From assembly GCF_015277775.1 (NCBI RefSeq), contig NZ_CP063849.1, forward strand, positions 6,091,501 to 6,155,500: a stretch of 64,000 nt of DNA. The letters are read 5' to 3'. Under the pieces are notes generated by a model. It ran no database searches and was not told the origin of the DNA. It saw nothing but the letters and a program-made list of their open reading frames with translations. Position numbers and translations under genes: made by a program. The stretch is from Paludibaculum fermentans. Its GTDB lineage: Bacteria > Acidobacteriota > Terriglobia > Bryobacterales > Bryobacteraceae. This document shows, one piece after another, positions 12,363-26,127 of this stretch (the first letter of the stretch is position 1; the number at the start of each line of letters is the position of its first letter).

Positions 12363-14036
12363 TTACCGATTCCTAGCGGAATCCAGCCGCCAGGCTGTGC
12401 TGTGAGCGGCCGGGACGAACTCCACCTCGCCCGGCAATGTCGTGGATACCGCTGCCGCCAACCGGCTGCCCACCGGCGCGATCTGGAAGACTCCCGCGCC
12501 CGCCTCCCGCAACTGGAACCTCTGCGCCGCCGAAGCCTCCGCACAGGCCGCCAACCCCAACCGGTAGCGCCCGCCATCCCCGCGCGCCTCGGCGCAACGG
12601 CCGGACTGGGCGTCAATGAACTTCACCGGCCAGTCCGGCCCCTCGCCGGTTGGCGCAACCAGCCACTTCTGCGCCGCGCCGCCTGCCGAGGTGCCCGAGG
12701 CGGCCGACACCGCGCCATCCGCATCATCCGCCGCCAGCCACTGGACTCCGGAATCGAGCGCCGCGATCGACGTCGATTCCAGAATTTTCCAGCGGTACAC
12801 CTGGCTAGGCGGGAACGTGGTCTTGTCGATCAACATCAGCCGCGAGGAGCCGGGCAGCGCCGTCACCGCGAGCCGAGGCATGTCCGCCATCACTACGTAG
12901 AAGTAGGAGCCTGTGTACTCCAGCCAGAAAGCCTGCGTCTGCGAGTTCTGCACGTCGGCCTGGCAGGGCCCCTGCGACACCTCGTAGTTCCTCAACTCCG
13001 CGCAGAGTCCGTTCGCCTCGTTGCGCAGTTGGTAGGCGGTCACCCCCGACTTCTTCACCGGCCAGAAGATCCAGGAGTCCGCGCGGCCGGTGCCGGCCGG
13101 CAAGGCATGCAACTCGGCGCCCGGCTGGTCCACCTTACCCTTCTGATGCCACAGCGTCGTGGTCCCCCCGGTGGTCGAGGTGATGGCGCCCCGGTTGTAG
13201 GAACCGGAGATTCCAATCGTGCCATTCCGCTCCACCCACCCGTAGCGGGCGCCGTTGTCCAGGAGAAACAGCGAATTCACTTCGTGGCTGTTCCCGCCCG
13301 TGGACCCCAGGAAGGTGGCGTCGCCGTAGCTGAACACCCCGCCGTCCCGCTTCAGCATCCAATACCCATTCACCGCGCCGCCCGCCGTGTGGCTGAGCGC
13401 CAGCCCCGTGTAGTCCTGTTTGAACGCGCCGCCGGTGGAACCGTAGAACACCGCGTCCCCCCGGGCATGCACGCCGCCATCGTCCTTCAGGATGTAGTAG
13501 CCGTTGCCCGACGGCGTCGGCGCGATCGTGGTCCCCATCAGATCGAACCCCTCCACGGCGTCCCCAAAATGCTTGGCGGTCCCCGCGCACCACACCTGGC
13601 CTCGATAGCTCAGCGCCCACAGCCCCTGTCCATCCGGTGTGGCCGCCGCGGACGTCACGTACTCATATTGGCCTGGATCCATGGGGTAGCCCGCGCAGTT
13701 CGACAGGCGCCCGCCGCAAATCTCGGGAGCTTCGCCGCGCGCATGGATCACGCCCCTCTTGGTCACCACCCAGTAGCCCGACTTGCCGGGAGCGGCCACC
13801 ACCGTGCCAGGCTCGTCCACACTCGGGTATGCGGGCGCGCCTCCAATCGCCAGGGTCTTGCCGGAGTCCTCACCGGTCTGCAATTGGAGCCAGATGCCGC
13901 CGTTAGGCGCCTGCGCCGCGCTGGTGAGCCAAACCATGCCGCCATAATCTGACGCCCGCGCCATCGGCGCCAGCGTCAACCACGCCAGCGCCAGGGGCGC
14001 CGCAAGTCTGCATAGAGTCTGATAAATCGTCTTCAT
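12363..14036 (-). CDS. Secreted beta-propeller-like / ricin-like repeat protein B1
   Basis: 557 residues, last of five tandem paralogues and the most divergent. Signal peptide MKTIYQTLCRLAAPLALAWL with an AxA-type site. The first 270 residues hold about six repeats of the type GYYILKDDGGVHARGDAVFY-GSTGG, NGYWMLKRDGGVFSYGDATF-LGSTGG; similar DGGV-GDA-GSTGG repeats occur in actinobacterial wall proteins, and I expect a beta-propeller. The C-terminal 280 residues have two ricin-type beta-trefoil-like parts (YQLRNEANGLCAELRNYEV; DAQSGRCAEARGDGG, AQRFQL). No enzyme motif; likely a secreted sugar-binding protein. Start: ATG 14036 with AGGA close upstream. It lacks the common last residues of B2-B5. 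Confidence 0.75.
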   Translation of the reverse strand: MKTIYQTLCRLAAPLALAWLTLAPMARASDYGGMVWLTSAAQAPNGGIWLQLQTGEDSGKTLAIGGAPAYPSVDEPGTVVAAPGKSGYWVVTKRGVIHARGEAPEICGGRLSNCAGYPMDPGQYEYVTSAAATPDGQGLWALSYRGQVWCAGTAKHFGDAVEGFDLMGTTIAPTPSGNGYYILKDDGGVHARGDAVFYGSTGGAFKQDYTGLALSHTAGGAVNGYWMLKRDGGVFSYGDATFLGSTGGNSHEVNSLFLLDNGARYGWVERNGTIGISGSYNRGAITSTTGGTTTLWHQKGKVDQPGAELHALPAGTGRADSWIFWPVKKSGVTAYQLRNEANGLCAELRNYEVSQGPCQADVQNSQTQAFWLEYTGSYFYVVMADMPRLAVTALPGSSRLMLIDKTTFPPSQVYRWKILESTSIAALDSGVQWLAADDADGAVSAASGTSAGGAAQKWLVAPTGEGPDWPVKFIDAQSGRCAEARGDGGRYRLGLAACAEASAAQRFQLREAGAGVFQIAPVGSRLAAAVSTTLPGEVEFVPAAHSTAWRLDSARNR

Positions 14037-14103
14037 TTTCCTGTTCTCTCGAAGTCTTTGGATTGCTTCCTGGTCCTATCGTGGGCGACTCCGCGCTTTC
14101 CGG

Positions 14104-14135
14104 CCATGGTCTGGAGAGGGTCTCGAGCTGAATCA
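14104..14135 (-). promoter_or_regulatory. B-type upstream element before B1 (degenerate)
   Basis: CCATGG at 14104-14109, then eight bases, then a sequence matching 10 of 18 positions of the block seen before B2, B3 and B5 (core CTCGA). It lies 68 bases before the B1 ATG. Confidence 0.4.
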
Positions 14136-14162
14136 ATATGTTGCGTGTTTCCAGTACTTTAC

Positions 14163-14195
14163 GGGCGCCGATCACATACCCGCGAGACGGCGCCC
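14163..14195 (-). terminator. Hairpin after B2
   Basis: GGGCGCCG (14163-14170) pairs with CGGCGCCC (14188-14195), 13 bases after the B2 stop. The loop is 17 bases and there is no T-run. Confidence 0.4.
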
Positions 14196-14208
14196 TCCGT
14201 ACCGCCCG

Positions 14209-15849
14209 CTATGGTAATTTGCTCAGGTCCATGATCCAGCGCACGCTCGCCGCGGAGAACATCACCCCGTGGTTCCAGGCCGGCGCGGCGCCCACCGAGT
14301 CGCTGAACGCGATGTTGATGCGATAAGCCTTCGGGCCGTCTTCCATCAGGCGAAACGTCTGCGGCTGCACGGCAGGCTGACACACGGACTGAAACAGGTG
14401 ATGCGCCCCGTCCAACCACTTGAACTCCCCGCAGTACCCCGTCTCCATGCTGATGAACCGGACCGTCGAACCCGGAACCGGGGCGGTGGCCGCCACAACC
14501 CAGTTCTGACGAGGCGTCTCGGGTCCCGGCACGCTGGTGCTGGTCTGGTTGCCCACCGCGTTCCACGTGTGCCACTGCGCACCCGGGGCTTCGGATGTGA
14601 CCGTCGTCACGTCCAGCGTGCGCCACTCGCCGTTGCCGGCGGTCAGCAGCCTCAGACGTGACCCTTCCTCCTTCACCAGGTAGTACTGCGGGTGTGGGGC
14701 CCAGACCACCCAGAAGGTTCCGTTGGCGCCGTCCACGATCCAGAATGCCTGTGGCTTCATCTTGAGGAGATCCTGTTGGCAGGCCGCCAGCACCAGCACA
14801 TCCGAGCGGACCTCCAGGCACATGCCATTGCGTTCGTTGCGCACCTGGTTGACGTACGTTCCGTTCCACCTGATGGGCCAGAAGATCCAACTTTCCACGC
14901 GGCTGGACCCGAGCGTCGCCGTGTGCAACTCCGTCCCGGGCTTGTCCACACCGCCATTCAGGGTCCACACCGGGCTGAGATCGTAGTCAGAAGTCGTCAC
15001 CGGCCCCCGGCGGTACGAGTCGGACAGCCCGATCTTGCCGTCATAGGTCACCCAACCGTACCGGATACCGCCATCCACCTGAAACAACGACGTGACCCGC
15101 GAAGCCTTGCCTCCCGTGGATCCCAGGAAGGCCGCATCGCCATAGGCGTGGACGCCGCCGTCCTGTTCCAGCATCCAGTAGCCATTCACCGCTCCGCCCG
15201 CCGTCCGGCTCAGCACCAGGCCGTTGTACTCCCGGTGGAAGTGGCCACCGGTAGACCCGAAGAACTCCGCGTCACCTCGGGCATGCACGCCGCCGTCACT
15301 CATCAGAATGTAGTAGCCTTTGCCGCTCGGAGTCGGCGTGATGGCAGTCCCGACAGTCGAGGTGTCACTCCGCTCGTCACCATAGGGCACGGCTGTTCCG
15401 GCTGTCCACACCTGGCCGTGATCACCCAAGGCCCAGAACCCCCCGCCATCGGGGGTGGCCGCGGCGTGAGTCACGTACGAGTTGGCGCCGGGATTGCTCG
15501 GGAAGTTGCTGCACTTCGAGAGGTGCCCTTCGCACAGCAGTGGCGCCTCTCCCCGTGCGTGGATGTCGCCCTTCTTGGTAATCACCCAATAGCCGTTCTT
15601 GCCAGGAATCGCCACCAGCGTGCCGGGCGCGTTCACGCTCTCAAACACCGGGGCTCCTCCCGATACAATGGTCCTGCCCCCATTCACGGTGTCGTTCACC
15701 TGAATCCAGAAGCCGCCATTGGGAGCCTGCGCGGCGCTGGTGACAAAGACGTTGCCATCGTAGTAATCCGAAGCCTTGGCGGCATGGCTCAACCCAAACG
15801 CCGCCAGCACCATGGGAACTACCATCCGGATCAGTTGACTCGTTATCAT
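14209..15849 (-). CDS. Secreted beta-propeller-like / ricin-like repeat protein B2
   Basis: 546 residues. Signal peptide MITSQLIRMVVPMVLAAFGL ends near AKA-SD. The same layout as the other B proteins: VTSAAQAPNGGFWIQVND opening blade, GYWVITKKGDIHARGEAPLLC with a conserved Cys pair (LLCEGHLSKCSN), GYYILMSDGGVHARGDAEFF-GSTGG, NGYWMLEQDGGVHAYGDAAF-LGSTGG, RYGWVTYDGKIGL, then the ricin-like half (YVNQVRNERNGMCLEVR; SMETGYCGEFKW; PQTFRL). It ends in MFSAASVRWIMDLSKLP, an ending shared by B2-B5. Start: ATG 15849 opens the signal peptide, with AGGAAAGG upstream; longer in-frame starts run through the conserved promoter. Function unknown. Confidence 0.75.
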   Translation of the reverse strand: MITSQLIRMVVPMVLAAFGLSHAAKASDYYDGNVFVTSAAQAPNGGFWIQVNDTVNGGRTIVSGGAPVFESVNAPGTLVAIPGKNGYWVITKKGDIHARGEAPLLCEGHLSKCSNFPSNPGANSYVTHAAATPDGGGFWALGDHGQVWTAGTAVPYGDERSDTSTVGTAITPTPSGKGYYILMSDGGVHARGDAEFFGSTGGHFHREYNGLVLSRTAGGAVNGYWMLEQDGGVHAYGDAAFLGSTGGKASRVTSLFQVDGGIRYGWVTYDGKIGLSDSYRRGPVTTSDYDLSPVWTLNGGVDKPGTELHTATLGSSRVESWIFWPIRWNGTYVNQVRNERNGMCLEVRSDVLVLAACQQDLLKMKPQAFWIVDGANGTFWVVWAPHPQYYLVKEEGSRLRLLTAGNGEWRTLDVTTVTSEAPGAQWHTWNAVGNQTSTSVPGPETPRQNWVVAATAPVPGSTVRFISMETGYCGEFKWLDGAHHLFQSVCQPAVQPQTFRLMEDGPKAYRINIAFSDSVGAAPAWNHGVMFSAASVRWIMDLSKLP

Positions 15850-15927
15850 TTCTCTGACCTTTCCTGCTCTTTCAATCTCTTGTGGAACTCTCTTCTGCCC
15901 CATATTCGGCCAACCCGGGCGGCAAAG

Positions 15928-15959
15928 CCATGGACCGGAGTTGAACTCGACATCAACCG
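15928..15959 (-). promoter_or_regulatory. B-type upstream element before B2
   Basis: The minus strand reads CGGTTGATGTCGAGTTCA (15959-15942), eight bases, then CCATGG (15933-15928), 79 bases before the B2 ATG. The block and the 8-base spacing recur before B3 and B5. Confidence 0.55.
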
Positions 15960-16043
15960 GTATCCGCCGTAAATTCAGTTGCTTACAGGCGCCAATGGCG
16001 GTCGCCTCACAGGGTGCCCGGAAGGCTACCGTGGCGAGGTGCC

Positions 16044-17687
16044 CTACAGCGAATCTGTGAGGTCCAGCACCCACCGCTGGCTCGCCATCGTGAACATCAC
16101 CCCGCCGGTGAAGCCCGGCGCGGCGCCAACCCCACTGTGAAAGGCAATGCTGATCCTGAAGACATTTCCACCATCAGGCACCAACCGGAACGTCTGAGTC
16201 TGCACCCCCATCTGGCAGGTGGCGTTGAACAGGTAGTCAGCCGTGCCGCTCCACTTGAACTCCCCGCAGTGTCCCGTCGCCATGCTGACGAACCGTACCG
16301 TCGAGCCAGCAACCGGAGCCGTCGTGGCCACCACCCATCTCTGCGGTGGCGTCTGCAGATCCGGTACGCCCAGGTGCGTCTTGTCGCCCACCGCGCCTGA
16401 CGTGTACCACTGCCCTCTGGTGGCCTCGGAGGTGACAGTCGTCGTGGCCAGCGTGCGCCACTGCGTACTCCCACTCATGGAAATCTCCAGCAGCGATTTG
16501 CCCGGCTTGATGACGATCGCCTGATATCCGTTTTGAGCCGGCGACACATACATGTTGTCGTCCCCTCCTGAACTGGCCAGAAACGCCTGTGCCCCGGAGT
16601 TGTTGAAATTGGCCTGGCACACTGCCTGCACCAACCGGTCTCCCTTGGCTTCCAGGCACAGGCCGTTGAACTCGTGCCGCAACTGATACACCGGCAGCCC
16701 TCCCCACTTGGCCGGCCAGAAGATCCAACTGTCCACCCGGCCGCTTCCCAGTTGCTTCGCGTGGACCTCGGCGCCCGGCTTGTCCACATCGCCCTGCAAT
16801 GTCCAAACCATGCTCAGATCGTGCTCCGTCGTCGACACCGGGCCCCGGCGATACGACGTGGAGTAACCAATCGTGCCGTTGTAGGTCACCCATCCGTAGC
16901 GGATACCGCCATCCAAACTGAACATCGAAGTCACTCGGGAGGTGTTCCCGCCAGTGGACCCCAGAAATTGCGCATCGCCGTACGCATGCACTCCTCCGTC
17001 TTCCTCCAAAATCCAGTAGCCGTTCACTGCGCCCACCGCCGTTTTGCTCAGCACCATGCCGGTATACTCACGGCCATACTGGCCGCCGGTGGAACCGAAG
17101 AAGACCGCGTCACCCCTGGTATGTACGCCCCCATCGCTCATCAGGATGTAGTAGCCCTTGCCGCTCGGCGTCGGAACAATGGCGGACCCGTAGATGTTGT
17201 TCTCTCCTTGCCGATCGCCGTAGGGCTGTGCTGTCCCCACAGTCCAGACTTGGCCGTCATAGCCCAAAACCCACAAGCCCAAACCGTCGGGCGTGGCTGC
17301 GGCATGGGTGACAAAGCTCTTATTGCCCGGATCACTCGGGTAGTTGCTGCACTTGGAAAGATGGCCTTCACAGAACGCTGGGGCATCGCCCCGCGAGACG
17401 ATGTCGCCACGCTTCGTCACTACCCAGTAGCCCATCTTGCCGGGCACGGCTACGATGGTGCCGGGCGCGTTGACACTCTCAAACACGGGAGCCGGACCCG
17501 ACACAATGGTCTTGCCGGTGTGCGCTGTGTCGTTCACCTGGATCCAGAAGCCGCCCTGAGGAGCCTGCGCGACGCTGGTGACCCACATGTTGCCGCTATC
17601 ATGATGGGCGGCAGTGGCCGAGTAGCTGAATGTGAACGCCGCCAACACTGCGGTAATATCGGCGCGGTTCAAGTAATTGGTCTGCAT
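16044..17687 (-). CDS. Secreted beta-propeller-like / ricin-like repeat protein B3
   Basis: 547 residues. Signal peptide MQTNYLNRADITAVLAAFTF followed by an ATA-A-type site. Repeats: VTSVAQAPQGGFWIQVND, GYWVVTKRGDIVSRGDAPAFC with EGHLSKCSN, LGLWVLGYDGQVWTVGTAQPYGD, GYYILMSDGGVHTRGDAVFF-GSTGG, NGYWILEEDGGVHAYGDAQF-LGSTGG, RYGWVTYNGTIGY; then two ricin-like segments (VYQLRHEFNGLCLEAKGDRL; SMATGHCGEFKWSGTADYLF). Ending MFTMASQRWVLDLTDSL. Start: ATG 17687 begins the signal peptide; the ribosome site is weak. It lies 194 bases from both neighbours, each gap holding a B-type element except the one before B4. Confidence 0.75.
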   Translation of the reverse strand: MQTNYLNRADITAVLAAFTFSYSATAAHHDSGNMWVTSVAQAPQGGFWIQVNDTAHTGKTIVSGPAPVFESVNAPGTIVAVPGKMGYWVVTKRGDIVSRGDAPAFCEGHLSKCSNYPSDPGNKSFVTHAAATPDGLGLWVLGYDGQVWTVGTAQPYGDRQGENNIYGSAIVPTPSGKGYYILMSDGGVHTRGDAVFFGSTGGQYGREYTGMVLSKTAVGAVNGYWILEEDGGVHAYGDAQFLGSTGGNTSRVTSMFSLDGGIRYGWVTYNGTIGYSTSYRRGPVSTTEHDLSMVWTLQGDVDKPGAEVHAKQLGSGRVDSWIFWPAKWGGLPVYQLRHEFNGLCLEAKGDRLVQAVCQANFNNSGAQAFLASSGGDDNMYVSPAQNGYQAIVIKPGKSLLEISMSGSTQWRTLATTTVTSEATRGQWYTSGAVGDKTHLGVPDLQTPPQRWVVATTAPVAGSTVRFVSMATGHCGEFKWSGTADYLFNATCQMGVQTQTFRLVPDGGNVFRISIAFHSGVGAAPGFTGGVMFTMASQRWVLDLTDSL

Positions 17688-17763
17688 TTTCTGATCGCTT
17701 TTCTTTTGTGGAGTTTTGTTCGATCCGGACATGACCCATGTTCGGCGAGTTCCCGGTTCAAAA

Positions 17764-17795
17764 CCATGGAACACGCATGAACTCGTTCTGAACCG
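17764..17795 (-). promoter_or_regulatory. B-type upstream element before B3
   Basis: The minus strand reads CGGTTCAGAACGAGTTCA (17795-17778), eight bases, CCATGG (17769-17764), 77 bases before the ATG. The flanking GCGCCT..AAGC.ACTGAAT upstream is also shared with B2. The CCATGG forms part of GGTTCAAAACCATGGAAC, an imperfect palindrome. Confidence 0.55.
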
Positions 17796-17881
17796 ATAAC
17801 TTATGCGTATTCAGTCGCTTAGGCGCACCACTGACGTCTCCCGCGCCAGCGGTCAGTCAGCTTCCGGAGTTGAGCGGAACC

Positions 17882-19525
17882 CTACGGCAAATTCGTAAGC
17901 TCCATACCCCAGCGCTTGCTGACCACCGTGAACATCACCCCGCCGTTGCTGGCTGGCGCGGCGCCGAAGCCATCGACAGAGGCAAAGTTAATGCGGTAGG
18001 TATTCACGCCATCGGGTGCCAACCGGAACATCTGCGGCTGCACTGCCGGCTGGCACGGAGATTGATACAGGTAGTAAGTCGTGATGTTCCACCTTTGCTC
18101 CGCGCAATGGCCTGTTTCCATGCTCACGAAGCGCACCGTCGAGTTGGGAACCGGGGCCGTCGTGGCAACCGCCCATCTCCGGGGCGGCGCCTGAATGCCG
18201 GGTGCACCGAGGGTTGTCAGGTTGCCCGCCGCGCCCCCCGTCTGCCATTGAGCCCCGGTGCCCTCGGCGGTCACCGTCGTCGTGTTCAGCGTGCGCCACA
18301 CCGTGGCGTCCGTGATGGAGATCTCCAGCCGGGACCGCCCCGGCATCTTCGCGATCGAGTATTGGGCCCGCTCGGCCGGCGCCAGGTACATGTTCTCGCC
18401 CGCTCCGGCGTAAAGCCGAAACGCCTGCGCCACGGAATCATTGAAGTTGGCGTGGCAGACGGCCTGCACCAGTCGGGCGCCGCTGGCCTCCACGCACAGC
18501 CCGTTGCGTTCATGCCGCAACTGGTAGACCGGCGCTCCCATCCACTTCACCGGCCAGAAGATCCAACTGTCCACGGGACCGGACCCGAGAGTGAATGCGT
18601 GCAACTCGGCGCCCGGCTTGTCCACATCGCCCTGCAGCGTCCAGACCGGGCTGAGGTCGTGCTCCGAAGTCGTCACCGGGCCCCGCCGGTACGACGTGGA
18701 CAACTCGATCTTCCCGTCATAGGTCACCCACCCATAGCGCACGCCGCCGTCCACTGGAAACAAAGAGGTTATCCGGGAACTCTTACCGCCTGTGGACCCC
18801 AGAAAGACCGCGTCGCCATAGGCATGCACGCCTCCGTCCTGCTCCAGCATCCAGTACCCGTTCACGGTCCCGCCCGCCGTCCGGCTCAGCACCAGGCCGT
18901 TGTACTTGCGGTTGAAGTGGCCACCAGTGGATCCGAAGAACACCGCGTCGCCCCGGGCATGCACGCCGCCGTCGTTCTTCAGGATGTAGTAGCCCTTCCC
19001 GCTGGGAGTCGGCGCAATGGCCGTCCCATAGATATGAGCCTCTCCCCGGGCGTCGCCGTAGGGCTGGGCTGTGCCCACCGTCCACACCTGACCGTCATAG
19101 CCCAGCGCCCAAAAGCCCCCGCCGTCCGGCGAGGCCGCCGCATGGCTGATGTAATTCATGCTGCTCGGACTTGCAGGGTAGTTGCTGCACTTCGACAGGT
19201 GCCCCTCACAAAGCATCGGAGCTTCCCCCCGTGCGTGGATGTCGCCACGCTTCGAGATCACCCAGTAGCCGTTCTTGCCCGGAACGCCCACAATGCTGCC
19301 GGGCGCATCGACACTCTCAAACACAGGAGCCCCGCCCGACACGATCGTCCTGCCGCTGTTCACTTTGTCGTTCACCTGGATCCAGAGGCCCCCATTGGGG
19401 GCCTGCGCCACGCTGGTGACGTAAAGATTGCCATCATAGTGATCAGCCGCGCCAATCTGGGGGCTGAAGGCGACCGCCGCCGCCACCAGGGCAATCGCGC
19501 TACGAATCAGTCGAATTGGTGTCAT
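17882..19525 (-). CDS. Secreted beta-propeller-like / ricin-like repeat protein B4
   Basis: 547 residues. Signal peptide MTPIRLIRSAIALVAAAVAF with the site near IGA-AD. Same blade and lectin-like order as the other B proteins (GYYILKNDGGVHARGDAVFF-GSTGG; NGYWMLEQDGGVHAYGDAVF-LGSTGG; YQLRHERNGLCVEASGARL). The middle of the gene (about 18241-18752) is about 98 percent identical in DNA to B5 (about 20007-20520), while the propeller part is much more different. Start: ATG 19525; the ribosome site is poor (AGAAAGA). It is the only B gene without the CCATGG element; its 122-base leader instead has short CAAAAC direct repeats, so it may be co-transcribed with B5. Confidence 0.75.
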   Translation of the reverse strand: MTPIRLIRSAIALVAAAVAFSPQIGAADHYDGNLYVTSVAQAPNGGLWIQVNDKVNSGRTIVSGGAPVFESVDAPGSIVGVPGKNGYWVISKRGDIHARGEAPMLCEGHLSKCSNYPASPSSMNYISHAAASPDGGGFWALGYDGQVWTVGTAQPYGDARGEAHIYGTAIAPTPSGKGYYILKNDGGVHARGDAVFFGSTGGHFNRKYNGLVLSRTAGGTVNGYWMLEQDGGVHAYGDAVFLGSTGGKSSRITSLFPVDGGVRYGWVTYDGKIELSTSYRRGPVTTSEHDLSPVWTLQGDVDKPGAELHAFTLGSGPVDSWIFWPVKWMGAPVYQLRHERNGLCVEASGARLVQAVCHANFNDSVAQAFRLYAGAGENMYLAPAERAQYSIAKMPGRSRLEISITDATVWRTLNTTTVTAEGTGAQWQTGGAAGNLTTLGAPGIQAPPRRWAVATTAPVPNSTVRFVSMETGHCAEQRWNITTYYLYQSPCQPAVQPQMFRLAPDGVNTYRINFASVDGFGAAPASNGGVMFTVVSKRWGMELTNLP

Positions 19526-19647
19526 TTTTGTAGTCTTTCTTGCACGTTTTGAGCTGTTTTGAGCCTGTTTTGCTGCAATCCGCAGCCTCCACACACCAGT
19601 CGCATCCGCAACCCAAGCCTGCGGAGCATTGCCGGTTTGACCGCGTC

Positions 19648-21282
19648 CTAAGGCAGATTGCTGAGTTCCATACGCCAGCTCCTGCTGGCCACCGTGAACA
19701 TCACCCCGCCGTTGCTGGCCGGCGCCGCGCCGAAGTTATCCACGAAGGCGACGTTGATGCGGTATGTATTTACGCCATCGGGCGCCAACCGGAACGTCTG
19801 CGGCTGCACCGCCGCCTGGCACAGGGATTGATACAGGTAGTAAGTCGTGGTGTTCCACTTAAACTCCGCGCAATGGCCGGTTTCCATGCTGACGAAGCGC
19901 ACCGTCGAGTTGGGAACCGGGGCCGTCGTGGCAACCACCCATTTCCGGGGCGGCGCCTGGATCCCGGGTGCGCCGGTGGTCGTCAGGTTGCCTGCCGAGC
20001 CCCCCGTCTGCCATTGAGCCCCGGTGCCCTCGGCGGTCACCGTCGTCGTGTTCAGCGTGCGCCACACCGTGGCGTCCGTGATGGAGATCTCCAGCCGGGA
20101 CCGCCCCGGCATCTTCGCGATCGAGTACTGGGCCCGCTCGGCCGGCGCCAGGTACATGTTCTCGCCCGCCCCGGCGTAAAGCCGAAACGCCTGCGCCACG
20201 GAATCATTGAAGTTGGCGTGGCAGACGGCCTGCACCAGTCGGGCGCCGCTGGCCTCCACGCACAGCCCGTTGCGTTCATGCCGCAACTGGTAGACCGGCG
20301 CTCCCATCCACTTCACCGGCCAGAAGATCCAACTGTCCACGGGACCGGACCCGAGGGTAAATGCATGCAACTCGGCGCCCGGCTCGTCCACATCGCCCTG
20401 CAGCGTCCAGACCGGGCTGAGGTCGTGCTCCGACGTCGTCACCGGGCCCCGCCGATACGACGTGGACAACTCGAACTTCCCGTCATAGGTCACCCACCCA
20501 TAGCGCACGCCGCCGTCCACCGGGAACATCGATGTGGCGCGCGGAGTTTTGCCGCCGCCGGAACCCAGAAAGACAGCATCGCCGTAAGTGTGCACGCCCC
20601 CGTCTTCTTCCAGCATCCAGTACCCATTCACCGTCCCGCCCGCGGTCCGGCTCAGCACCAACCCCGTATAGTCCCGTGTGTAATGGCCCCCCGTGGAGCC
20701 AAAGAACATCGCGTCGCCGCGCACATGCACCCCGCCATCGGTCTTCAGGATGTAGTAGCCATTGCCGGATGGCGAGGCCGCGATCGCCGTCGCCACATGC
20801 TTGTCCTCGTACGCGTCGCCGTGGAACGCCGCCGTCCCCGCGGTCCACACCTGGCCCGACCGGCCCAGTGCCCAGAAACCCCGCCCATCGGGTGTCGCCG
20901 CGGCATGGGTCACGTACTGTTTGTCATTGGGCGTCACCGGGAATCCCGAGCACTTCGACAGGTGTCCCTCACACAACTCCGGCGCCTCGCCGCGTGCGTA
21001 GATGTCGCCATTCTTCGAGATCACCCAATATCCGTTCTTCCCCGGAACACCCACGATGGTGCCGGCCGCGTTGACGTTCTCATACAGCGGGGCCCCTCCG
21101 GTGGCCACGGTCCGGCCGCCGTTGACCGTATCGTTCACTTGAATCCACAAACCGCCATTGGGCGCCTGAGCCACACTGGTGACATACACGTTGAAATCGT
21201 GCGAATGGGCCGCCTGAACGCCTGGATGGAGGCTGAGCACGGCCACTGCCGCCTGAATGGTGAGTCGAATCGAAGTCCGCAT
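19648..21282 (-). CDS. Secreted beta-propeller-like / ricin-like repeat protein B5
   Basis: 544 residues, first of the five in transcription order. Signal peptide MRTSIRLTIQAAVAVLSL, site near VQA-AH. Repeats: VTSVAQAPNGGLWIQVND, GYWVISKNGDIYARGEAPELC with EGHLSKCSG, GRGFWALGRSGQVWTAGTAAFHGD, GYYILKTDGGVHVRGDAMFF-GSTGG, NGYWMLEEDGGVHTYGDAVF-LGSGGG; then ricin-like segments ending in SMETGHCAEFKWNTTTYYLY and PQTFRLAPDG. Start: ATG 21282 with GAGGA five bases upstream, the best ribosome site in the set. Secretion and sugar binding are inferred. Confidence 0.75.
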   Translation of the reverse strand: MRTSIRLTIQAAVAVLSLHPGVQAAHSHDFNVYVTSVAQAPNGGLWIQVNDTVNGGRTVATGGAPLYENVNAAGTIVGVPGKNGYWVISKNGDIYARGEAPELCEGHLSKCSGFPVTPNDKQYVTHAAATPDGRGFWALGRSGQVWTAGTAAFHGDAYEDKHVATAIAASPSGNGYYILKTDGGVHVRGDAMFFGSTGGHYTRDYTGLVLSRTAGGTVNGYWMLEEDGGVHTYGDAVFLGSGGGKTPRATSMFPVDGGVRYGWVTYDGKFELSTSYRRGPVTTSEHDLSPVWTLQGDVDEPGAELHAFTLGSGPVDSWIFWPVKWMGAPVYQLRHERNGLCVEASGARLVQAVCHANFNDSVAQAFRLYAGAGENMYLAPAERAQYSIAKMPGRSRLEISITDATVWRTLNTTTVTAEGTGAQWQTGGSAGNLTTTGAPGIQAPPRKWVVATTAPVPNSTVRFVSMETGHCAEFKWNTTTYYLYQSLCQAAVQPQTFRLAPDGVNTYRINVAFVDNFGAAPASNGGVMFTVASRSWRMELSNLP

Positions 21283-21340
21283 CTGTTCCTCTTTTTGATA
21301 ACCTTGCTGACCCTATCGTGCGCGCTTCGGCCGCACAGGA

Positions 21341-21372
21341 CCATGGTTTCGAGGTGACTTCGCAATCAACCG
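21341..21372 (-). promoter_or_regulatory. B-type upstream element before B5
   Basis: The minus strand reads CGGTTGATTGCGAAGTCA (21372-21355), eight bases, CCATGG (21346-21341), 59 bases before the ATG at 21282. Confidence 0.55.
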
Positions 21373-21434
21373 ATATCTACCGTCTTATCAATGACATCAG
21401 AGTCCCGCTGGAGCGCCTTCCCCCAACAAAAAAA

Positions 21435-21454
21435 CGGGGCTCCGAAGAGCCCCG
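21435..21454 (-). terminator. Rho-independent terminator of the A' gene
   Basis: CGGGGCTC (21435-21442) pairs with GAGCCCCG (21447-21454) around a tetraloop; the minus strand continues into T7 (21434-21428). It lies 25 bases after the A' stop and separates A' from B5. Confidence 0.88.
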
Positions 21455-21478
21455 CGCTGTCGACTGGAACCGGTTGTG

Positions 21479-24342: not shown

Positions 24343-24366
24343 ACAACAGCAGGCGGGAAATTATCA
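24338..24366 (-). promoter_or_regulatory. TGATAA/TCCCCC element upstream of A'
   Basis: TGATAATTTCCC from 24366 and TGTCCCCC ending 24338 (minus strand), 83 bases before the ATG. The first three bases are the stop codon of the upstream regulator gene. Confidence 0.6.
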
Positions 24367-26127
24367 GGGGTGGGCGGTGAATTCGCGCGGCAGGTTCATC
24401 TGCCGGTGGATCCGGGCAAACGCGGGCTCCGCGCGGAGTGTATCGAAGGGCGGCAACTGGGAATGCAGCGGCAGATTCACATCGTGCAACTCGGCCGCCT
24501 TCTCCAGCCATTGGAGCGCCTGATCTCGCTCCCCCAGGCCAAGATAGCCCAAGGCCATGGTCACGGGCCGCACGTGCGCCGAGCTTTGCAGTTGCGCCAG
24601 ACGGCGGAAGCAGTCGCGGGCTTCGCTGGAACGCCCCAAGCCGGAGTAGGCGTGGATCATGCCCGTCAGGGCGATGGGAAGCGGCGTCGCCGCATAAGCG
24701 CGCTCCAGCGCCGCCAGTGCATCGGCGTACCTCTCCACGGCGAGCAATGCCGCGGCATAGACCAACAGGCCCAGGGCGAATTCGGAGTTGCCCTCCAGCA
24801 GGTCTTCGCTTTCCCTGAGCGATTCGGCGGAACGGTTGGCGAACAAAAGAATCTGCGCGCGCTCACTGCGCAGGAAGAGCGACGATGGCTCGATTGCCAG
24901 CGCCCGGTCGACATGCTGCAGCGCCTCCTGGTGCCGGCCTTCGGCCAGCAGCACCATGGCGTACAAATGCTCGGCGTGAGCCGATTGAGGATTGTAGTCC
25001 AGCGCGGCCTTGAGCCGTTCCTCCCCCTCTTTCCAGTTCCAGTCGTGCAGCGCGAGGATGGCCCCCATCGTGGCGTGGGCCTGCGCCTGCGCGGGATCGA
25101 GAGCCAGCGCCTGCACCGCGTAGCTGGTTGCCAGCTTGGCCGCATCCTGAGAGGGGATGTGTTCGAAGAAGTCCAGCCGCCGGTAGGTCTCCGCCAGGCC
25201 GGCAAAGGGCGCGGCCCACGACGGAGCCTCGGCAATCGCGGCCAGAAACCAATCGATGGCTCTCATCAATGATTTTGGGGCGCGCACGGACAACAGATAG
25301 TTTGCTTTGAGATAAGCCTCATACGCCGTGGGACTGATCCGAACCGGCTCCGGTGCATGCTCGGTCCGCAAGGCTCGAGAGGTAGAGGTCACGATCGCCT
25401 GCGCCACTTCTCTTTGCAGGAACAGAATGTCACGCAAGTCGCGATCGTAGGTTTGCGCCCAGAGATGCCGGTCCGCTTGCGCGTCCAGCAGCCGGACGGA
25501 GATTCGGATGCGGTCACCAGAGCGGAGAATGGAGCCCTCCACGATGGACTGTACCTCCAACTCCTGCGCGATCTGCCGGAGGCTGAGTGACGATTCCCGG
25601 TAGTGCAGCATGGTCAGGTGCGAGATCACCCGCAGGCCCGACTGCTGGGCCAGTTCCGTAATCAGCATGTCCGTCAGGCCGTCGGCGAAGTACTGTGTCT
25701 CGGTGTTGCCGGAGAGGTCCCGCAGGGGAAGAACGGCAATGCCGGGGACGTCCTTCGCTGAGGCCTCCTCGAGGATCGGCGCCATCAGCCGGTACCCTTT
25801 GCGGGCGACTGTCTCGATGTAGGTAGGCGAAGCCGCATTCTCCCGCAGGGCCTGGCGGAGCTTCATTACCGCCGTATTGATGCTGCCTTCGAAGTCAACG
25901 AAGTAGTCGTCCGGCCAAAGCGTCCGTTGGATCTCCTGCCTGGATACAAATCGCCCCCGGTGCACGAGCAACAGCTTGAGGATCTCGAACGGCTGCTGCT
26001 GCAGCTTGATCGGCACGCCCTTGCGGCGCAACTCCTGCTTCTCCAGGTCGACGTCGAACACGCCGAAGCGGAAGAGATTCCCGGCCGGCGCGCCACCGTC
26101 GGCCCTTCGCAAATCGCTTGAGTTCAT
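24364..26127 (-). CDS. Winged-helix regulator with FlgO/TolB_N-like domain and TPR repeats
   Basis: 587 residues. Residues 15-115 are an OmpR-type winged helix (FRFGVFDVDLEKQELRRKG; WPDDYFVDFEGSINTAVMKL; TYIETVARKGYRLM). Residues 130-250 match the TolB-N/FlgO-like module often found after such domains (IAVLPLRDLSGNTETQYFADG; GLRVISHLTM; VEGSILRSGDRIRISVRLLD). The rest is TPR-like helices (ALDPAQAQAHATMGAILALHDW; DYNPQSAHAEHLYAMVLLAEGRHQEAL). No obvious transmembrane helix. It probably binds DNA in response to a protein or small ligand. Start: ATG 26127 with AGGAGGG upstream. It lies directly upstream of A' in the same direction and is a good candidate regulator of the A/B block. Its own leader carries TGATGAGTT...CGCCCCTATT. 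Confidence 0.85.
   Translation of the reverse strand: MNSSDLRRADGGAPAGNLFRFGVFDVDLEKQELRRKGVPIKLQQQPFEILKLLLVHRGRFVSRQEIQRTLWPDDYFVDFEGSINTAVMKLRQALRENAASPTYIETVARKGYRLMAPILEEASAKDVPGIAVLPLRDLSGNTETQYFADGLTDMLITELAQQSGLRVISHLTMLHYRESSLSLRQIAQELEVQSIVEGSILRSGDRIRISVRLLDAQADRHLWAQTYDRDLRDILFLQREVAQAIVTSTSRALRTEHAPEPVRISPTAYEAYLKANYLLSVRAPKSLMRAIDWFLAAIAEAPSWAAPFAGLAETYRRLDFFEHIPSQDAAKLATSYAVQALALDPAQAQAHATMGAILALHDWNWKEGEERLKAALDYNPQSAHAEHLYAMVLLAEGRHQEALQHVDRALAIEPSSLFLRSERAQILLFANRSAESLRESEDLLEGNSEFALGLLVYAAALLAVERYADALAALERAYAATPLPIALTGMIHAYSGLGRSSEARDCFRRLAQLQSSAHVRPVTMALGYLGLGERDQALQWLEKAAELHDVNLPLHSQLPPFDTLRAEPAFARIHRQMNLPREFTAHP

What the first reader, a model, noticed from the sequence alone, without database searches (positions are those of the whole stretch)
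14104..21372. A second conserved regulatory element before four of five B genes
On the minus strand, B2, B3 and B5 share CGGTTnAnnnCGAnnTCA, exactly eight bases, then CCATGG, 59-79 bases before the ATG; B1 has CCATGG with a degenerate first block at the same spacing. B4 lacks it. Conserved spacing over diverged surroundings points to a binding site or promoter that was copied with the genes and kept by selection.
Basis: seen in the sequence. Interest (0 to 1): 0.6.

Follow-up and report, generated by a model that had tools for sequence, protein, structure and literature searches.

The report
Shared promoter module before B genes
A short, rigidly spaced DNA element sits in front of most copies of one duplicated family of probably secreted proteins in a wetland Acidobacterium, including a copy more than four million bases away and the copies in a sister species, and it is most likely the switch by which one regulator controls them together.

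Summary
CGGTTnAnnnCGAnnTCA-N8-CCATGG is exact before B2, B3 and B5; B1 has a weaker copy, B4 none. A sixth B gene 4.2 Mb away carries the element (17 of 18 positions), as do five B loci of a sister species, one a pseudogene. A profile from B2, B3, B5 and B6 recovers held-out B1 (E=9e-6) and all five sister copies (E<=2e-7); next-best places score E=0.05 and 0.2. Specified positions change less between species than interleaved ones (3/72 against 12/56, P=0.004, B1 left out). A third block, NATRGG exactly 23 bases after CCATGG, was missed; it may be a weak -10. I read the whole as an activator-type operator plus promoter, copied with the genes and kept by selection. Modest 11-bp self-similarity recalls sites of OmpR/PhoB-type winged-helix proteins, which fits the neighbouring HilA-like winged-helix/TPR regulator; an inverted-repeat reading is not excluded and no binding was tested. 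B4 is perhaps read through from B5. A new element of a well-known kind.

The parts
21341..21372 (-). Element before B5: CGGTTGATTGCGAAGTCA-N8-CCATGG, exact
   Evidence: sister copy with 1 mismatch
21312..21317 (-). Third block before B5, GATAGG, 23 bases after CCATGG (possible -10)
17764..17795 (-). Element before B3: CGGTTCAGAACGAGTTCA-N8-CCATGG, exact
17735..17740 (-). Third block before B3, CATGGG
15928..15959 (-). Element before B2: CGGTTGATGTCGAGTTCA-N8-CCATGG, exact
15899..15904 (-). Third block before B2, TATGGG
14104..14135 (-). Degenerate element before B1 with intact CCATGG
   Evidence: held-out profile hit E=9.3e-6
14075..14080 (-). Third block before B1, GATAGG
21434..21455 (-). 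Terminator-like hairpin (9 pairs, then a T run) between A2 and B5, so B5 probably needs its own promoter downstream of it; the same hairpin is in the sister species
   Evidence: the number of terminator-like sites overall is at chance level in both scans; this one has the most pairs listed
19526..19647 (-). 122-base gap B5 to B4 with no element and no terminator-like site called; 116 of 122 identical in the sister species; B4 perhaps read through from B5 (inference)
19648..21282 (-). B5, probably secreted: propeller-like repeats plus ricin-B-lectin-like match (27.7 bits, cut-off 25.6)
17882..19525 (-). B4 (82% identical to B5)
16044..17687 (-). B3
14209..15849 (-). B2
12363..14036 (-). B1 (ricin-B-lectin-like domain, E 9.6e-11)
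24364..26127 (-). Candidate regulator: OmpR/PhoB-type winged helix (residues 39-114) plus TPR region, HilA/CadC-like layout

Best explanation
The element is the conserved operator half of a promoter module that was duplicated with the B genes and kept by purifying selection. A trans-acting transcription factor, most likely an activator, binds the 32-bp site. If the third block (NATRGG) is a weak -10, the site lies at about -67 to -36, ends where the -35 hexamer would begin, and so could help RNA polymerase start at a promoter with a poor -35 and -10. Because the same site precedes the remote B6 gene, one factor would switch the B genes on together; B4 would be co-transcribed with B5. The factor is probably an OmpR/PhoB-type winged-helix protein bound head to tail to 11-bp units, with the neighbouring winged-helix/TPR regulator (24364-26127) the first candidate. 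Shown: the element, its spacing, its association with B genes, its conservation. Inferred: promoter function, -10 assignment, activation, direct-repeat binding, read-through into B4, identity of the factor.
For: Association: 3 exact window copies and a 1-mismatch copy just before B6 at C1:1928132-1928163; of 12 matches in the sister genome at up to 3 mismatches (control 6), the 4 with one mismatch are before B2, B3, B5 and the B6-like pseudogene, and one of the 8 with three is before B1. Profile from 4 copies: held-out B1 at E=9.3e-6, next non-B 0.048; sister genome 5 of 5 copies at E<=2.1e-7, next 0.21. Selection: 3/72 against 12/56 changes between species, Fisher P=0.004, B1 left out. Module: NATRGG at exactly +23 in 5 of 5 own copies and 4 of 5 sister copies; 7 invariant columns in the 55 bases after CCATGG among the own five, slide null mean 0.53, maximum 6 in 20,000. 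A terminator-like hairpin separates A2 from B5 in both species. Self-similarity of the element peaks at lag 11, P=0.0125 after allowing for lags 5-19, own five. The regulator's DNA-binding domain matches VicR, CadC, OmpR and PhoB chains; OmpR/PhoB-family response regulators bind direct repeats, in PhoP 7-bp motifs with a 4-bp spacer (passages of PMC4832192). The regulator's full-length close relative (96%) is seen only in the 2 of 9 genus genomes with B genes.
Against: No transcript or binding data. The third block matches TATAAT at only 2-3 of 6 positions (by eye), and no sigma-70-type promoter is called on the B strand in the gaps. Terminator-like sites overall are no more than chance (9 against 8.9; 8 against 11.8). 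Direct-repeat evidence is modest: for B2, B3, B5, B6 alone P=0.0425, and 0.0805 with 22 more bases, where the palindrome reading reaches 0.057; a unit-matrix test was ambiguous, the matrices from units 1 and 2 each scoring the other unit better in reverse than forward. Identity between paralogues is also raised outside the named blocks (about 0.50 in the 23-base gap, 0.45 upstream), so part of the likeness may be shared ancestry. B genes and regulator are restricted to two sister species, so co-occurrence may be one event, and A2 shows the same distribution. The two genomes hold 29-30 matches to the regulator each, and DNA-binding-domain matches reach 51% identity in a genome without B genes. 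No element was found before the regulator.
Confidence: 0.72

Rival explanations
1. The blocks are the core promoter of an alternative sigma factor rather than an activator site: TTnAnn (-35-like), 17 bases, CCATGG (-10-like), with the third block in the 5' leader.
For: The spacing from TTnAnn to CCATGG is 17 bases (by eye); the alignment of ten copies has no gap.
Against: CCATGG matches TATAAT at 0 of 6 positions (by eye); a sigma factor normally serves more than one gene family (general knowledge), yet no other place in the own genome scores better than E=0.048 (150 of 3,452 first-look candidates scored); the third block at fixed distance would be unexplained.
Confidence: 0.12
2. The site is an inverted-repeat operator of a symmetric dimer (for example a repressor), TTGA-nn-TCGA-nn-TCAA centred in the first block, with CCATGG a second palindrome.
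For: The best palindrome axis of the profile lies in the first block in all six settings tried (score 0.524 for the own five); for B2, B3, B5, B6 over the longer stretch P is 0.057, slightly better than the direct-repeat P of 0.0805 there; CCATGG is itself a palindrome; the matrices of units 1 and 2 score each other better in reverse.
Against: Not significant over all axes for the element alone (P=0.17 own five, 0.12 four copies, 0.28 all ten); B3 keeps only 6 of 16 symmetric positions (by eye); a position just upstream of the possible -35 suits an activator better (inference).
Confidence: 0.13
3. The element acts in the 5' leader as RNA or as a short upstream reading frame starting at the ATG of CCATGG.
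For: CCATGG contains an ATG and the third block is in its frame; in B1 the frame ends overlapping the B1 start (by eye).
Against: No unusually stable fold: z-scores -0.69 to +1.56 in 5 of 5 own leaders. Between species several changes in this frame alter residues, and no clear ribosome-binding site precedes the ATG (both by eye).
Confidence: 0.05
4. Plain duplication residue: the blocks are identical only because the genes were copied, with no function.
For: The genes are tandem duplicates; B4/B5 show signs of sequence exchange; identity is also somewhat raised in the 23-base gap and upstream.
Against: Interleaved positions are near random between paralogues while the specified ones are kept; species differences avoid specified positions (P=0.004); before B5 the upstream sequence has diverged and differs by 69 gap columns while 39 of the 40 bases after CCATGG are kept.
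Confidence: 0.04

Closest known systems
Pho box / PhoB and other OmpR/PhoB-family sites
   Same: Winged-helix DNA-binding domain in the candidate factor; 11-bp unit length (PhoB: two 11-bp direct repeats, passage of PMC3978041; PhoP: 7-bp motif with 4-bp spacer, passages of PMC4832192).
   Different: Different sequence; three possible units, of which the third holds the palindrome CCATGG; the candidate factor has no receiver-domain match in Pfam at E<=0.1.
HilA and the HilA box
   Same: Best NCBIfam match of the candidate regulator is the HilA/EilA family over residues 40-446: winged helix plus TPR region. That HilA also binds repeats near -35 is recalled; the paper was not held.
   Different: 96.3 bits against a cut-off of 589, so not a member; soil bacterium; different target genes; box sequence not compared.
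AfsR/SARP family (Streptomyces) and the afs box
   Same: OmpR-type winged helix, with TPR in AfsR; 11-bp direct repeats at a promoter with poor -35/-10 (passages of PMC10936776).
   Different: In SARP promoters the 3' repeat lies 8 bp from the -10; here the only candidate -10 seen lies 23 bases after CCATGG.
CadC/ToxR-like one-component regulators
   Same: Same DNA-binding domain class.
   Different: Those are membrane proteins (recalled); no membrane segment is evident in the candidate by eye.

Membership tests
Bacterial transcription-factor operator/promoter module | Same site, same internal spacing, before several genes, conserved above surroundings | tested here: met
Bacterial transcription-factor operator/promoter module | Bound by a protein and affects transcription | not testable with these tools
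   needs gel shift, footprint, reporter
OmpR/PhoB-type direct-repeat site | Tandem units at 11-bp spacing | tested here: inconclusive
   lag 11 is the best lag in all six settings, P 0.0095-0.0805; unit-matrix test ambiguous
SARP (afs-box type) promoter | 3' repeat 8 bp from the -10 | tested here: inconclusive
   no -10-like block seen there by eye in the ten copies; candidate -10 is 23 bases after CCATGG; no mapped start
Sigma-70 promoter | TTGACA/TATAAT-like hexamers at 16-18 bases on the B strand | tested here: not met
   none called on the minus strand in the B upstream gaps; one plus-strand site overlaps the B2 element (15947-15975), totals at chance level; third block 2-3 of 6 by eye
HilA/EilA regulator family (for protein 24364-26127) | NCBIfam NF009037 cut-off of 589 bits | tested here: not met
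   96.3 bits
OmpR/PhoB-type winged-helix protein (for protein 24364-26127) | Trans_reg_C domain above Pfam gathering score | tested here: met
   63.1 bits against 26.2
Structured RNA leader | Fold more stable than shuffles | tested here: not met
   z -0.69 to +1.56 in 5 of 5 own leaders

The most novel reading that the evidence does not exclude
The winged-helix/TPR regulator and this element form a dedicated regulator-operator pair, in which a HilA-like one-component activator binds three 11-bp units ending in CCATGG and drives a private regulon of duplicated propeller/lectin genes, including one 4.2 Mb away. It would give a worked target site for one of the many winged-helix/TPR regulators of these Acidobacteria.
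Probability: 0.3. Interest if true: 0.5.

Novelty: new member of a known kind. Interest (0 to 1): 0.33.

Why it matters
It turns a tandem gene family of unknown role into a testable co-regulated set and gives a concrete DNA target for one of the many related winged-helix/TPR regulators (29-30 matches in each of the two genomes). The A genes, B genes and regulator were seen together in only two of nine genus genomes, so it also shows how a lineage-specific gene set is copied and moved with its control site. The kind of element itself is ordinary.

Tried and rejected
RNA structure in the leaders: no support. Sigma-70 promoter by consensus scan: none on the B strand in the gaps, totals at chance level. 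Short upstream reading frame at CCATGG: in frame with the third block, but residues are not kept between species (by eye). Palindromic operator: best axis in the first block, P 0.057-0.28 by setting. Unit-matrix test of the direct-repeat idea: ambiguous. Element before the regulator or the A genes: none among the 11 matches at E<=10 in window, L015, L025 and L063; the only non-B match (12.9 bits, L063) lies inside the sister regulator gene. Wider B relatives for footprinting: weak partial matches in two other genomes of 200 in the family, 1 of 396 sampled phylum genomes, the window's own (which scored at most 3 candidates in the genomes listed), four distant partial matches in metagenome-assembled genomes, none in viral contigs. 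The B5 model is poor overall (mean pLDDT 58.3); Foldseek matches are mostly propellers at low TM-scores, used only as a hint. The plasmid collection did not name the small contig; the organism was named from published contig lengths. Literature: Acidobacteria/winged-helix/TPR/CadC, 0 papers; HilA/OmpR/TPR/DNA-binding domain, 0 papers; HilA box, listing and one reference-list passage; Acidobacteria promoter papers, a listing of 3 not opened. I make no claim that the element is absent from print.
Full report
What is there. On the minus strand the window holds five paralogous genes, B1 (12363-14036), B2 (14209-15849), B3 (16044-17687), B4 (17882-19525) and B5 (19648-21282), between two other paralogues, A1 and A2. 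The pattern CGGTTnAnnnCGAnnTCA-N8-CCATGG is exact at 15928-15959, 17764-17795 and 21341-21372. B1 has CCATGG at 14104 with a degenerate first block; nothing was found before B4.

Where the window comes from. The own assembly has contigs of 9,476,802 and 55,292 bases. These are the chromosome and plasmid lengths published for Paludibaculum fermentans P105T, a wetland Acidobacterium (whole text of PMC8407742).

Genome-wide test. With up to 3 mismatches the genome has 7 matches: the three above, one with a single mismatch at C1:1928132-1928163, and three with three mismatches; the reversed control pattern has 6. The single-mismatch copy lies directly before a sixth full-length B gene (B6, 51% identical to B5), 4.2 Mb from the window. 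This is an independent confirmation, since B6 lies outside the window. Beside it lies a fragment of another B gene with three TGA codons.

Sister species. Of 9 genus genomes only the window's own and G100 have B genes; among the 5 that are at least 90% complete and at most 5% contaminated it is 2 of 5. G100 has 12 matches at up to 3 mismatches against 6 for the control: the 4 with one mismatch lie before B2, B3, B5 and a B6-like pseudogene, and one of the 8 with three mismatches lies before B1. B4 again has none; the B5-B4 gap is 116 of 122 identical. In 237 family genomes an exact pattern, relaxed after seeing B6, occurs 6 times, all before B genes in these two genomes.

Held-out test. A sequence-only profile of 71 columns was built from B2, B3, B5 and B6. 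On the own genome it gave 15 matches at E<=10: the four training copies, B1 at 9.3e-6, and ten others from 0.048 upwards. On G100 it gave 9: five at 3.8e-14 to 2.1e-7, all before B loci, and four others from 0.21. In both searches 150 of about 3,400 first-look candidates were scored. So, as far as this search reaches, the module is tied to the B genes and serves no other gene.

Selection. Between species, specified positions changed 3 times in 72 and interleaved positions 12 times in 56 for B2, B3, B5 and B6 (Fisher P=0.004; B1 left out). Between paralogues the interleaved positions are 31% identical, but the 23-base gap is about 50% and the upstream stretch about 45%, so the surroundings are not wholly random. 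Before B5 the sequence upstream has diverged and the alignment has 69 gap columns, while 26 of 32 element bases and 39 of the next 40 are kept.

Anatomy beyond the report. Anchoring the ten copies on CCATGG shows a third block, NATRGG, exactly 23 bases downstream in 5 of 5 own and 4 of 5 sister copies (GATAAG in the pseudogene copy). The 55 bases after CCATGG hold 7 invariant columns among the own five; sliding the sequences gives 0.53 on average and never more than 6 in 20,000 trials. Conservation also reaches upstream (8 invariant columns in the 40 bases before the element; an ATA just before it and a TG further back), which may partly reflect shared ancestry of the tandem units.

Mechanism. 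A terminator-like hairpin lies between A2 and B5 in both species, although such sites overall are not above chance there; if it works, the B5 promoter must lie in the remaining gap, where the element is. If NATRGG is the -10, the 32-bp element lies at about -67 to -36, immediately upstream of the -35 position, where activators commonly bind (established knowledge). The hexamers are poor sigma-70 matches, which fits a promoter that depends on an activator. These are inferences; the -10 assignment in particular is uncertain.

What binds. Self-similarity within the element is highest at a lag of 11 bases (0.45 of positions against 0.13-0.33 at the other lags from 3 to 16, own five). Allowing for the choice of lag, P is 0.0125 for the own five, 0.0095 for all ten and 0.0425 for four copies over the element, and 0.04-0.08 with 22 more bases. 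A palindrome in the first block gives P 0.12-0.28 over the element and 0.057-0.23 over the longer stretch. A unit-matrix test did not separate the two readings and leaned to reverse matches between units 1 and 2. Direct repeats of 11-bp spacing are reported for PhoB, PhoP and AfsR (passages of PMC3978041, PMC4832192 and PMC10936776). But A2 has the same distribution, the two species are sisters, and each of the two genomes has 29-30 matches to this regulator, so the link is circumstantial.

The genes controlled. B proteins have an N-terminal helix that looks like a signal peptide (by eye; low model confidence), propeller-like repeats, and a ricin-B-lectin-like region that passes the Pfam cut-off in B1, B3 and B5 and just misses it in B2 and B4. 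A role in binding sugars outside the cell is a guess.

Verdict. It is a new, lineage-specific element of a known kind; the factor that reads it is not established.

Noticed in passing
L025:1078-2188 (-), sister genome G100: In the sister species a B6-like pseudogene (2 TAA inside, second piece separate) lies just beyond A1 in the cluster, with its upstream element still at 1 mismatch; in the window's species the intact B6 lies 4.2 Mb away, so the gene and its element may have moved together.
   Followed up: partly
L015:8211-8750 (-): A fragment of a B gene (39% identity to B5's C-terminal third, 3 TGA) lies directly upstream of the B6 element, as a B gene precedes B1, B2 and B3 in the cluster.
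   Followed up: no
window 17882-21282: B4 and B5 are nearly identical in their middle part (about residues 260-450) but differ more before it, in both species, which suggests sequence exchange (gene conversion) between them.
   Followed up: no
   Followed up: no
G100:C1:4337563-4340533: A further A homologue (40% to A2) stands beside a short fragment of the winged-helix/TPR regulator (73% to residues 541-584, opposite strand, 1 TAA in its frame), hinting that A gene and regulator were once duplicated as a pair.
   Followed up: no
window 12363-21282: The B family was found almost nowhere else: 2 of 9 genus genomes, weak partial matches in two other genomes of 200 in the family, only the window's own of 396 sampled in the phylum, and four distant partial matches in other metagenome-assembled genomes.
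   Followed up: yes
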